Source: Bursaphelenchus xylophilus
Taxonomy: Eukaryota > Nematoda > Chromadorea > Rhabditida > Aphelenchoididae
Direction: 5' to 3'
Assembly: GCA_904066235.2 (NCBI GenBank)
Contig: CAJFCV020000002.1
Location: 7,502,001 to 7,566,000, forward strand
Length of the DNA: 64,000 nucleotides
Shown: piece after piece, positions 35,782 to 39,000 of the stretch
How the letters are laid out: each line of letters starts with the position of its first letter
Numbering within the stretch: the stretch's first letter is position 1
Translations under genes and position numbers: made by a program
Notes under the pieces: generated by a model
Databases searched by the model: none
What the model was told of the DNA's origin: nothing
What the model saw: only the letters and a program-made list of their open reading frames with translations

Positions 35782-36066
35782 CTACACAAAAAACCTAGGA
35801 CTTCTAAACTTTCGATACTGCCCGATCGTGTGACTGCAAATCGGGCAATAATGTAAATAGTCAGCGAAAGCCCTTAATATGCATGGGAATATTGCACATG
35901 GCCAGAGAAATGTGACCACCAGTAAGACTGTACAGAACATGGCAAAGCCTCCAACCACGGGCTTGGGGATGGTGGTAACGGCCTTCCGACATCTACTACA
36001 ATAAACTCGACAAGGGCGCTCATTAAAGTCCAGGTTAATGGATCTTGTTTGTCTGTTGGGTGGGTC
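35782..36066 (-). other. nmr-1: LITAF-domain terminal exon of nmr-1
   Basis: This exon starts after CTCTCCTTGCAG in frame 0, and the upstream GluN1 exon ends in frame 0 at CAG before GTGCGT, so the join is in phase. Within it lie two CxxC pairs flanking a long hydrophobic stretch and the signature HYCPIC...G.Y, which define LITAF (zLITAF) domains. The exon has no in-frame ATG before the first CxxC, so it cannot easily be a separate LITAF gene. LITAF domains are cytosolic, monotopic membrane zinc modules of endosomes and plasma membrane, which fits the cytosolic side of a GluN1 tail. Confidence 0.8.
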
Positions 36067-39000
36067 CTGCAAGGAGAGGATTAGACCCTTGAACTCGAGT
36101 TGAAACGCGGTTTACAAGTCCCGCGGGCTTTGTCACGCACCTGTTGTTGATCTTCGATGGTCTTGAGAGCGCCCGAATCAGCTGATTGTTGACGGGCCCG
36201 GAGGCGCCAGCGTTGCGCGTAATTGAATGCGAGGCGTTTTCGTTTACTGTAATACATTTCAGACATCATATTACACAAGTTTCCATTCAGTCGAGTCTGT
36301 GTTTCCCTAGGGTTTCTATTATTTAACTTACCCTTCTTTTAGCTTCTTCCTTCCAATTTGAACTTCAAAAAAGCTCAAGATAGATCCGACCACCACTCCC
36401 ACGGCCACTAATATGAACAGATCTCTCATATTCTGTAATCCCAATCTGGCCGGAGTCTTGTGGATTTCATGATGACACTTCTCTTTCCCTGCTGTCCCGA
36501 TCCATTTACTCTCCATTTTCTGAATATCTCCCGCTAAATGTGAACTAAAACAGGATGTAAAGACAACCTTACTCTCAGCCAGTTTCAAGATCCTTGAAGT
36601 TATATAAGGAGTCCAAGGGGAGTTTTTCCTGAGGGCAATACCATACGCAGACCTCCCAAATAAGGTTCCCCGGGCTCTGAGATCACAATTCTTTGAGGCC
36701 TCGAAATCCAGACGAGCCGAATCCCAAATAAATGCCCCCAGGCTTCTAAAAAAAATAAGTAAAGTACTCAACCGTTCATGGCACGAACGATTAAATCTTA
36801 CTCATTTAACAAAGCATTGATCGCTTCTTGGGCGGTTTTATAATTGTGGCTCTCCATTTTCCTGAACATTGTACTTAATTCGACCTGTCGTTTGAAATAT
36901 TGGTACGTGTTGGAGTGGATTACTGTGCCGAATGAGAAATTTATGGAAGGATTTCGGAACTAAAATACGGTTGGAGAACAATTTAGGATCAAACCATAAG
37001 TTAAGAGGTGTAAAATCTCCGATGAGAGCATGATGACTAAAAAAATGGTGACAAACCCTCACCTTCGGATCATTGATGCCATTGAGACTCTTATCAGGTT
37101 GATCCAGAACCAAGAACGCGGCCAGATTGGCCGTATAAGAGGCTACCATAATCATACAAAATCCACACCAAACAATTCCAAGAACTCGCGCGGAAAACGA
37201 ACGAGGAGTCTCTAAGATAAGATAACTCTTGCCCAACTTTGAAATCACTGCAAATGATCGCAAACGTACTTTCGCTGACTCCCGAGTTAAGTAGCACGCC
37301 CCAAACAAACCACATTGCCTCGCCGAAGGAAACCGGGGTATCCTCCAATTCTGGTCTCGTGAAGATATCTTTTTGATAGGGAATGTTGAAAGGAGATCTG
37401 CAAAACATATCCATTCCCTTCGATATATCATTAAATTATTCTACCTCCAATCCAGTAGATATATTATGCACCCAATGACGAGAACAGACACAAAGAGGGC
37501 TCCCCATAAACTCTTCTTCAGAGGTTGCAGAAATGATTCCATTGGAGAATCTCGAGGATGCTGAAATCAGGATTACAGTAATCACATTTGGTCGACCAGT
37601 GTTTATTGCACCGCCCTACCCATTTCTCGAGCACTCGAATTCCATGAAACAGCCATGGCTCACTGAAATCCACGTACTTTTCCCGTTCCGGATTAATCGA
37701 CAAGGCGCCGATGGCCAGATCAGCTAGTCCAATATCCAATTCTCCGATCATTCCATTCAAAATGAGGTCATCTTCAGTGACGACTGGACCCCCATAAGTA
37801 TCATTTAAATGGAGTTCAAACTCGAAAGTGGCATCTCTTTGGGCTTCCATCGACGAGAGCTGTACTAACAAATCGATGGCAAATCCAGCACAGCAATGGT
37901 AGGAAGTGTAAGTGAGGTTCTCCTTTTTGGTACAGGGGGTCCAAGGACCTGGCTAAAACAATATAAAGATCAAAAGAGTGCAACTATATAAGAAGGAAAG
38001 TTGGCACGACTTACCACATGACCTCCCTCCACAAACATTGTCTTATAATATTTGCATTGACTTTTCTCAGCGACTGGAATCGAATACGTAAATGGGGGAT
38101 CGGGTACCGTAACGGCCTTGAGATTCTTTGGCAGTGTAATCTCTTGAGGCTTCAACAAACTATCTCCAGGCCATACAATCGAGGACTCATTGATGGATAA
38201 GTTACCGTAATGGGTCTAAAAACATCAATCTCAAAACATAGACCCACCATAAATCCAACAATGGCATCACCATCTGCATGGTGATTAAGAACATCATACG
38301 AAGCCTCTGTTCGATCTCCATTCCCATCAAATTCGATGTCATGGTAGTCACTATGGACCTTGGAAGTTATCATCTTGTCATAAAATCGCTGCCCAATATT
38401 ATTAATCCACTCATTGTTTTTGTTGATCTTGCATTGAGAAGGTGGACGGACCTCAATAAAATCATCGAAAATCTCCAATCCGTTTCGCAACACCGCCAAC
38501 GCATCTCTTAACGAGCTGAGGACGGTCTGACGCAGTCTGACCGATAAAACCCCTCTGGGCACATTGTCCGCTTTGAAGCCGGCTTCATTTACCAACCAGA
38601 CCCGACCTTTCACAAAGAGTTCAACGGATTCATTGAAGATTCTGAAGGCTTTTGAAGTCTTGGCATACAAAATAATCGTATTAGAAGTTGTGCCCTTGAG
38701 GGATTCGGTCAAATTGAAATTAGCATCCTCAATTTCAATGTGTTTTTGGATCTGGAATAACAAAAATTATGCATGACTGAATCAAAAATACCTGAATCTT
38801 GTTTCGAATACTAAGACTGTCAAATACTTGGACAAATTCTTGGCCATTTACGTCTTCCGCTACCGTAATCACCACAACCTGATGGTATTTGAGGGCATTC
38901 AAGAGATGGACAAAGACAAACGCCTCGTTACTGAATGGAGGGGAAGTTCGGAGAAAGGTCGGGTAGACATTCTGGAGGAATTTTGGGCATACAGCTTGAT

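What the first reader, a model, noticed from the sequence alone, without database searches (positions are those of the whole stretch)
35782..36332. GluN1 NMDA receptor subunit fused to a LITAF-like domain
Seen: after M4 and the GluN1-like proximal tail, exon 14 ends in frame 0 at CAG|GTGCGT. Exon 15 starts in frame 0 after TTGCAG and encodes 94 residues with CSRC, a hydrophobic stretch and HYCPIC...GQY, the LITAF (zLITAF) signature. The exon has no usable start of its own before the first zinc ligand pair. Known: LITAF modules are cytosolic monotopic zinc domains on endosomal, lysosomal and plasma membranes. The GluN1 tail is also cytosolic, so the topology agrees. Inference: the domain could anchor the receptor tail to membrane, bind zinc, or direct endosomal sorting. 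I know of no described ionotropic glutamate receptor with this architecture.
Basis: partly seen in the sequence, partly recalled or inferred. Interest (0 to 1): 0.88.

Follow-up and report, generated by a model that had tools for sequence, protein, structure and literature searches.

The report
Nematode NMDA receptor with LITAF tail
In gene models of the pine wood nematode and many other nematodes, C. elegans included, the GluN1 subunit of the NMDA-type glutamate receptor ends in a LITAF zinc domain, which likely ties the receptor's inner tail to the membrane and would help steer the receptor through endosomal recycling; in the papers searched this architecture turned up only as a database label, not as a described feature.

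Summary
The minus-strand gene at 39558-35782 is GluN1 (nmr-1) of Bursaphelenchus xylophilus; a 15-exon model gives 984 aa, identical to a public protein of this species. Exon 15 (36066-35782) is an in-frame LITAF domain (PF10601, 52 bits, E 7.8e-14) with no ATG in its frame before the first zinc pair. Among the best 120 of 838 hits, 34 of 47 nematode-type GluN1 rows carry PF10601, from 29 named species including C. elegans. Of the 13 without it, 8 show part of the domain and 5 stop or diverge before it. None of the 73 other listed rows carries it. Both zinc Cys pairs are present in 30 of the 34; all 34 end F/V-x-V/I, mostly FYV. The domain is nearly as conserved as ligand-binding segment S1; the linker before it is not. 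Likely mechanism (inferred): the tail re-enters the membrane as a zinc-stabilised anchor, acting as a built-in recycling module with a PDZ-ligand-like end. Literature searches found only the label 'LITAF domain-containing protein' for NMR-1. Clade I nematodes could not be tested; no RNA reads were available.

The parts
35782..39558 (-). nmr-1/GluN1 gene, 15 coding exons, 984 aa
   Evidence: Manual splice model with consistent phases; same sequence as P0001; the best 56 of the 60 PDB rows shown are GluN1, 499 bits against 203 for GluN2A
36332..36533 (-). Exon 13: end of S2, M4 and start of the cytosolic tail
   Evidence: Model; AlphaFold2 helix 820-876 covers M4 and its extension
36141..36246 (-). 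Exon 14: C0-like proximal tail and start of the variable linker
   Evidence: Aligned by phmmer to a solved GluN1 up to its residue 865; no PF10562 hit
36067..36140 (-). Intron 14 (74 bp, GTGCGT...TTGCAG) joining receptor tail to LITAF exon
   Evidence: the public protein P0001 has the same junction
35782..36066 (-). Exon 15: LITAF exon, 94 residues plus stop
   Evidence: PF10601 52 bits, E 7.8e-14
35989..36000 (-). First zinc ligand pair, C913-S-R-C916
   Evidence: Both Cys in 27 of 27 aligned nematode tails
35866..35949 (-). Predicted hydrophobic membrane anchor (two helices within residues 930-957, around WPC..FPC)
   Evidence: AlphaFold2 models, exon alone and full length
35836..35847 (-). 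Second zinc ligand pair, C964-P-I-C967
   Evidence: Both Cys in 27 of 27 aligned tails, one of them (P0024) spaced CxxxxC; 30 of 34 LITAF rows have both pairs
35785..35793 (-). C-terminal F-F-V, PDZ class II ligand-like end
   Evidence: 34 of 34 LITAF rows end F/V-x-V/I: FYV 26, FFV 6, FNV 1, VFI 1

Best explanation
This is the GluN1 subunit of an NMDA receptor whose predicted coding frame runs on, after M4 and a short C0-like tail, into a conserved LITAF zinc domain that likely dips the receptor's cytosolic tail back into the membrane and would help steer the receptor through endosomal recycling to the cell surface. Shown here: the frame, the domain match, its presence in GluN1 models of many nematodes, intact zinc ligands and a conserved hydrophobic end. 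Inferred: the domain folds around one zinc and inserts as a monotopic anchor, as human LITAF does. Inferred: because the tails carry the membrane module without the PPxY and PTAP motifs of full-length LITAF, they would behave like the isolated LITAF domain, which goes to recycling tubules and the plasma membrane. Inferred: the terminal F-Y/F-V binds a PDZ scaffold.
For: The fusion: frame and splice sites, Pfam hit, same public model, no ATG for a separate gene in the exon's frame. Conservation: 34 of 47 nematode-type GluN1 rows carry PF10601; 27 of 27 aligned tails keep the four zinc Cys. LITAF identity to B. xylophilus averages 48.6% over 24 rows, against 52.8% for LBD S1 (23 rows), 37.2% for the ATD (21 rows) and 10.8% for the linker just before it (22 rows), so the module is constrained and the spacer is not. 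LITAF and receptor distances co-vary in 25 rows (Mantel r 0.88, 0 of 5000 permutations as high), as expected of one inherited gene. AlphaFold2 gives a three-strand, two-helix, two-strand fold for the exon (mean pLDDT 76.3) and nearly the same elements after a low-confidence linker 878-899 in the full protein. Both termini of human LITAF are cytosolic, it holds 1 mol zinc per mol, and zinc-ligand mutants lose membrane association (PMC5095921, abstract). The isolated LITAF domain labels recycling tubules and plasma membrane, and tagged LITAF co-precipitates with Pacsin2 and EHD1 (PMC8353527, section 6). Strict PPxY and P[ST]AP motifs are absent from the tails of 30 of 30 rows with both zinc pairs. 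Precedent in trans: LITAF overexpression raises surface Nav1.5 (PMC7939464, abstract).
Against: No RNA, localisation or electrophysiology bears on the domain here. In human LITAF the adjacent anchor Cys C130 and C131 are needed to partition into recycling tubules; single mutants stay on endosomes. An adjacent Cys pair inside the anchor occurs in only 1 of 30 nematode tails (P0010, Cys positions) and not in B. xylophilus; the Cys of WPC is kept, but I did not align human LITAF, so whether either human position is matched is open. The AlphaFold2 model of the exon holds no zinc or membrane, has no residue at pLDDT 90 or more, and matches no solved fold well (best Foldseek E 0.38, ribosomal zinc-ribbon proteins). 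LITAF's effect on Nav1.5 runs through NEDD4-2, and the Nedd4-binding PPxY is missing here; two tails have an LPxY string (P0007, P0011). Mean pairwise distance is higher in LITAF (0.47) than in LBD plus TMD (0.32), and between the two Bursaphelenchus species LITAF identity (74%) is no higher than that of the ATD (74%). Degradation or static anchoring would fit much of the same evidence.
Confidence: 0.48

Rival explanations
1. Static tether: the LITAF module simply pins the short tail under the membrane and presents the C-terminal F-x-V to a PDZ scaffold, setting clustering or gating rather than sorting.
For: Conserved end in 34 of 34 LITAF rows; the three stand-alone LITAF frames of this genome whose ends I read (L001, L002, L005, of five other PF10601 places) stop within a few residues of the last zinc-ribbon strand without such an end; the stretch from tail start to first zinc pair is 56-97 residues in the 25 of 30 rows where the script placed the tail start; the paired anchor Cys used by human LITAF for tubules is not evident.
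Against: A plain PDZ ligand needs no zinc anchor; the known behaviour of LITAF domains is in endosomal membranes. It can hold together with the best explanation.
Confidence: 0.28
2. Degradative sorting: the module sends NMR-1 to endosomes, multivesicular bodies and lysosomes and so limits receptor number.
For: Full-length human LITAF is endosomal and important for multivesicular body sorting (PMC5095921, abstract); LITAF-domain mutants of anchor Cys C130 or C131 localise to endosomes rather than tubules, and an adjacent Cys pair is seen in 1 of 30 nematode anchors.
Against: The ESCRT-I (PTAP) and Nedd4 (PPxY) motifs of human LITAF are missing from 30 of 30 nematode tails examined; the wild-type human domain alone goes to recycling tubules and plasma membrane.
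Confidence: 0.16
3. Cytosolic zinc sensor: zinc occupancy of the ribbon switches membrane anchoring of the tail and so receptor retention.
For: Four Cys ligands in 27 of 27 aligned tails; zinc-ligand mutants of LITAF lose membrane association.
Against: Four-Cys zinc ribbons are usually structural and bind zinc tightly (general knowledge); nothing here shows a weak site.
Confidence: 0.05
4. Annotation merger: LITAF is a separate downstream gene wrongly joined to nmr-1.
For: No RNA reads were available here; 13 of 47 nematode-type public models lack PF10601.
Against: No ATG before the zinc ligands in the exon's frame; GluN1 followed by LITAF appears in 34 rows from 29 named species; a LITAF-only profile search found three proteins, which look like short pieces of the same tails, though that search was insensitive (195 candidates).
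Confidence: 0.02

Closest known systems
Metazoan GluN1 (vertebrate NMDA receptor subunit 1)
   Same: ATD, LBD, transmembrane and pore regions align; SYTANLAAFLVL and the pore-site Asn (N622, site recalled) are kept; match runs from residue 76 to 875 with a solved GluN1 (498.7 bits)
   Different: After the C0-like stretch, vertebrate GluN1 has C1/C2 or C2' cassettes (recalled); here a LITAF domain follows. PF10562 (C0) is not detected in three nematode tails
LITAF/SIMPLE and CDIP1 (stand-alone LITAF-domain proteins)
   Same: PF10601 zinc ribbon with a hydrophobic insertion; the tail side of GluN1 is cytosolic, as are both ends of LITAF
   Different: Human LITAF also carries PPxY and PTAP (PMC8353527, Fig. 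1 legend); here the N-terminal partner is an ion channel, and the C-terminus has a conserved F-Y/F-V
C. elegans NMR-1
   Same: Same architecture and end (1025 aa...FYV, P0013)
   Different: Studied as an NMDA receptor subunit; in the papers found, the domain appears only as a label (PMC11094273 glossary, passages)
Regulation of Nav1.5 by LITAF
   Same: LITAF raises surface level of an ion channel
   Different: Acts in trans and through NEDD4-2 (PMC7939464, abstract); here the domain is part of the channel

Membership tests
GluN1 | ANF_receptor, Lig_chan-Glu_bd and Lig_chan domains in order | tested here: met
   Pfam hits over cut-off at 111-303, 441-545, 562-834
GluN1 | Closer to GluN1 than to GluN2 or AMPA/kainate receptors | tested here: met
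   56 of the 60 PDB rows shown are GluN1/NR1, up to 499 bits; the other four are GluN2A at 203 bits or less; 276 matched in all
GluN1 | Asn at the pore site and SYTANLAAFLVL in M3 (features recalled) | tested here: met
   N622 and residues 652-663 are invariant across the 31 rows of alignment A3
GluN1 | C0 calmodulin-binding segment (PF10562) | tested here: not met
   No PF10562 hit with max_evalue 10 in the tails of B. xylophilus, C. elegans and Toxocara (HMMER filters drop most weak matches), although phmmer aligns the start of the tail with GluN1. I read it as a drifted segment, not a bar to membership
GluN1 | Glycine-gated current with GluN2 | not testable with these tools
   Needs electrophysiology
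LITAF domain (PF10601) | Profile match over the curated cut-off | tested here: met
   52 bits against 23.8, profile positions 2-70 of 70
LITAF domain (PF10601) | Two zinc Cys pairs flanking a hydrophobic stretch | tested here: met
   C913/C916 and C964/C967; 27 of 27 aligned tails, one with a CxxxxC second pair
LITAF domain (PF10601) | Zinc binding and monotopic membrane insertion | not testable with these tools
   AlphaFold2 predicts strands and two short helices; no metal or membrane assay
LITAF domain (PF10601) | Adjacent anchor Cys (human C130/C131) needed for tubule partitioning | tested here: inconclusive
   Adjacent Cys inside the anchor in 1 of 30 tails; the Cys of WPC is kept, but human LITAF was not aligned
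LITAF protein family (full-length LITAF/CDIP1) | PPxY and PTAP motifs (as in human LITAF) | tested here: not met
   0 of 30 nematode tails, over the 140 residues before the first zinc pair and the domain; two LPxY strings, P0007 inside the domain and P0011 before it. The protein contains a LITAF domain but is not a LITAF-type protein

The most novel reading that the evidence does not exclude
Nematode NMDA receptors carry their own trafficking module: an ancient fusion gave GluN1 a zinc-locked, curvature-supporting LITAF anchor plus a PDZ-ligand end, so the receptor itself helps build the recycling tubules that return it to the synapse, doing in cis what other animals do with separate LITAF proteins and C-terminal cassettes.
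Probability: 0.25. Interest if true: 0.88.

Novelty: new variant of a known kind. Interest (0 to 1): 0.72.

Why it matters
NMR-1 is a much-used model of NMDA receptor function in learning and locomotion, yet I found no paper in the searched library that discusses this tail. If the tail is a membrane-inserting zinc module, C. elegans offers a clean test of how a covalently attached LITAF domain controls an ion channel, a question that also bears on LITAF in Charcot-Marie-Tooth disease 1C and on cardiac channels. It also marks a part of a receptor shared with mammals that no listed non-nematode row has, and warns against carrying vertebrate C0/C1/C2 tail rules over to worms.

Tried and rejected
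LITAF as a separate gene: rejected (no ATG in the exon's open frame; same architecture in other species). LITAF-lacking isoforms as a regulated switch: A. ceylanicum locus Y032_0441g1521 has models with the domain (P0019, P0030) and without (P0035, P0042), but the latter end CSRCR-VGVF, which reads as run-on into an intron. The same kind of end occurs in P0028, P0034, P0037 and P0043. I take these as truncated models and infer an intron after CxRCR in those species; I had no DNA to prove it. P0017 holds half the domain and then runs into other sequence. P0039 holds part of it. P0041, P0044, P0045 and P0046 stop before the domain, and P0038 diverges before it into other sequence.

Census of fusions by a tail-only search failed: it returned 4 rows from 78 candidates and missed most of those already found, so it is no evidence of absence. 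The LITAF-only profile search returned 3 rows from 195 candidates and none of the ordinary stand-alone LITAF proteins, so it says nothing about relatives. Solved structures: none for this domain by sequence (none at E up to 1, best E 0.24, ribosomal eL42). Foldseek gave only weak matches, mostly ribosomal zinc-ribbon proteins; the viral library and VIA-align were not run. The promoter/terminator scan is for bacteria and says nothing here. The distance correlation does not by itself show interaction, since any two vertically inherited parts correlate.

Literature: ten searches of open-licence PMC. The one paper holding both 'nmr-1' and 'LITAF' (PMC11094273, passages) uses the database label in a glossary. 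Of the other papers that hold LITAF with NMDA words (PMC7836458, PMC7049706, PMC7999523) I saw only the listing. The 2018 survey of metazoan glutamate receptors (PMC6307864, passages) has no occurrence of LITAF in its main text. Most subscription papers are not held, so the statement covers only this library. PMC2696103 and PMC2645691 (passages only) gave nothing on the NMR-1 tail.

Full report
What is there. The window lies in a 78 Mb genome, and its GluN1 model has the same 984 residues as a protein of Bursaphelenchus xylophilus (P0001; taxonomy). I therefore take the organism to be the pine wood nematode, a plant parasite. The gene is on the minus strand, 39558-35782, with 15 coding exons; the 14 introns are 32-103 bp and the splice phases are consistent. 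The protein has the ANF_receptor, Lig_chan-Glu_bd, Lig_chan and zf-LITAF-like domains. Against solved structures, 56 of the 60 rows shown (276 matched) are GluN1 or NR1, up to 499 bits; the other four are GluN2A, at 203 bits or less. The best alignment, with chain 9pqh_B, runs to residue 875 here (865 in the chain), inside the C0-like tail, and ends there.

The added domain. Exon 15 (36066-35782) encodes 94 residues. PF10601 matches at 52 bits, E 7.8e-14, over profile positions 2-70 of 70. The frame containing it starts at 36111 and has no ATG before the first zinc pair. Six places in the genome match PF10601 and eight places, some of them pieces of one gene, match the channel domain PF00060; both counts are lower bounds by the tool's own note. 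Among these, the window locus is the only one where the two lie side by side; the next closest pair is about 260 kb apart.

A feature of many nematodes. A search with residues 560-984 gave 838 protein clusters, of which the best 120 were listed. I treat 47 of these as nematode-type (P0001-P0046 and P0057; P0010 shows no species and P0006's name was cut). PF10601 is precomputed for 34 of the 47, from 29 named species: Bursaphelenchus (2), Steinernema (2), Panagrolaimus, Panagrellus, Parastrongyloides, Meloidogyne, Aphelenchoides, Caenorhabditis (6, including C. elegans), Pristionchus (3), Mesorhabditis (2), Haemonchus (2), Ancylostoma, Necator, Nippostrongylus, Syphacia, Enterobius, Gnathostoma and Thelazia. 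These span what are commonly called clades III, IV and V (recalled). None of the other 73 listed rows (arthropods, molluscs, an annelid, rotifers and unnamed sources) carries it; most show the C0 family PF10562. The 718 hits not listed were not seen, so clade I nematodes and other ecdysozoans remain untested.

Rows against. Thirteen of the 47 lack PF10601. Eight of them show the start or part of the domain before the model breaks off: P0017, P0028, P0034, P0035, P0037, P0039, P0042 and P0043. Five stop or diverge before it: P0038, P0041, P0044, P0045 and P0046. I saw no row with a complete, different, plausible tail, but I cannot prove that the truncations are annotation errors. Of the 34 with the domain, four (P0016, P0032, P0036, P0040) lack the first zinc pair in the model, which I read as a missed exon; 30 of 34 have both pairs.

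Conservation. In 27 aligned tails the four Cys are present in all. That is 27 of the 34; I left out P0016, P0032, P0036 and P0040 for missing the first zinc pair, and P0023, P0030 and P0033 as further rows of species already in the set. In P0024 the second pair is spaced CxxxxC. All 34 LITAF rows end in F/V-x-V/I: FYV 26, FFV 6, FNV 1, VFI 1. That fits a class II PDZ ligand (rule recalled). The three stand-alone LITAF frames of this genome whose ends I read stop shortly after the last strand (L001, L002, L005). Mean identity to B. xylophilus, over 24 rows unless noted (25 of the 34 LITAF rows were in the alignment, the reference included), is: ATD 37.2% (21 rows), S1 52.8% (23), M1-M3 73.9%, S2 63.1%, M4 63.6%, C0-like tail 36.8%, linker 10.8% (22), LITAF 48.6%, last nine residues 44.0%. 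Rows with under half coverage of a segment were dropped for that segment. So the zinc module is nearly as constrained as the S1 lobe, while the spacer in front of it is nearly free. Against: between the two Bursaphelenchus species LITAF identity is 74%, equal to the ATD and below S1 (80%), and over 25 rows the mean distance is 0.47 in the tail module against 0.32 in LBD plus TMD.

Structure. AlphaFold2 on the exon with a 30-row alignment gives three strands, two helices (exon residues 40-53 and 57-67) and two strands, mean pLDDT 76.3, none at 90 or more. The full-length model shows a long M4 helix (820-876), a low-confidence linker (878-899) and nearly the same LITAF elements. No solved fold matches well.

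How it likely works. Human LITAF is monotopic, both ends face the cytosol, it holds one zinc, and zinc-ligand mutants lose membrane association (PMC5095921, abstract). It embeds through a predicted in-plane helical anchor and interacts with phosphoethanolamine head groups (PMC5142333, passages including part of the abstract). The LITAF domain alone labels recycling tubules and plasma membrane, while the full-length protein, drawn with PPxY and PTAP motifs, is mainly on vesicular endosomes (PMC8353527, section 6). The nematode tails have the domain but neither strict motif in 30 of 30 rows examined; two have an LPxY string. The inference is that GluN1's tail, already cytosolic after M4, is pinned back to the membrane 56-97 residues later (25 rows measured) and biases the receptor to recycling. 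LITAF can raise surface levels of another channel, Nav1.5, though in trans and through NEDD4-2 (PMC7939464, abstract). A result against this direction: single mutants of the adjacent human anchor Cys C130 and C131 stay on endosomes, and an adjacent Cys pair in the anchor is seen in 1 of 30 nematode tails. The Cys of WPC is kept, but I did not align human LITAF. Sorting direction, zinc occupancy and PDZ binding are all untested.

Novelty. The parts are known, and the combination is present in public databases as an automatic name. In the open-licence papers searched I did not find it described as a feature of NMDA receptors; the one paper holding both 'nmr-1' and 'LITAF' has it as a glossary label. 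I rate it a new variant of a known kind: an ionotropic glutamate receptor with a covalent membrane-trafficking-type domain, conserved across the nematode groups sampled.

Noticed in passing
39769 to about 41200, minus strand: An ESCRT-III-type gene with a Snf7 domain (97 bits), resembling CHMP7 (name recalled), ends about 210 bp upstream of the nmr-1 start codon on the same strand; the spacing might allow an operon.
   Followed up: partly
38216-38247, minus strand: Intron 5 of nmr-1 is only 32 bp in this model, yet the public protein has the same sequence, so its annotators used an equivalent splice.
   Followed up: no
36067-36140, minus strand: If intron 14 were retained, the receptor would end after 19 other residues without the LITAF domain; whether such an isoform exists is unknown.
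   Followed up: no
P0028, P0034, P0035, P0037, P0042, P0043: Gene models from several nematode groups run on at the same point, right after CxRCR inside the LITAF domain, suggesting a shared intron there that Bursaphelenchus exon 15 lacks.
   Followed up: partly
31024-31816, minus strand: Fragments of a AAA/clamp-loader gene resembling a replication factor C subunit (one fragment tested; name recalled).
   Followed up: no
33135-33664, minus strand: Fragments of a possible EF-hand protein; one of two fragments tested matched, weakly and below the Pfam cut-off.
   Followed up: no
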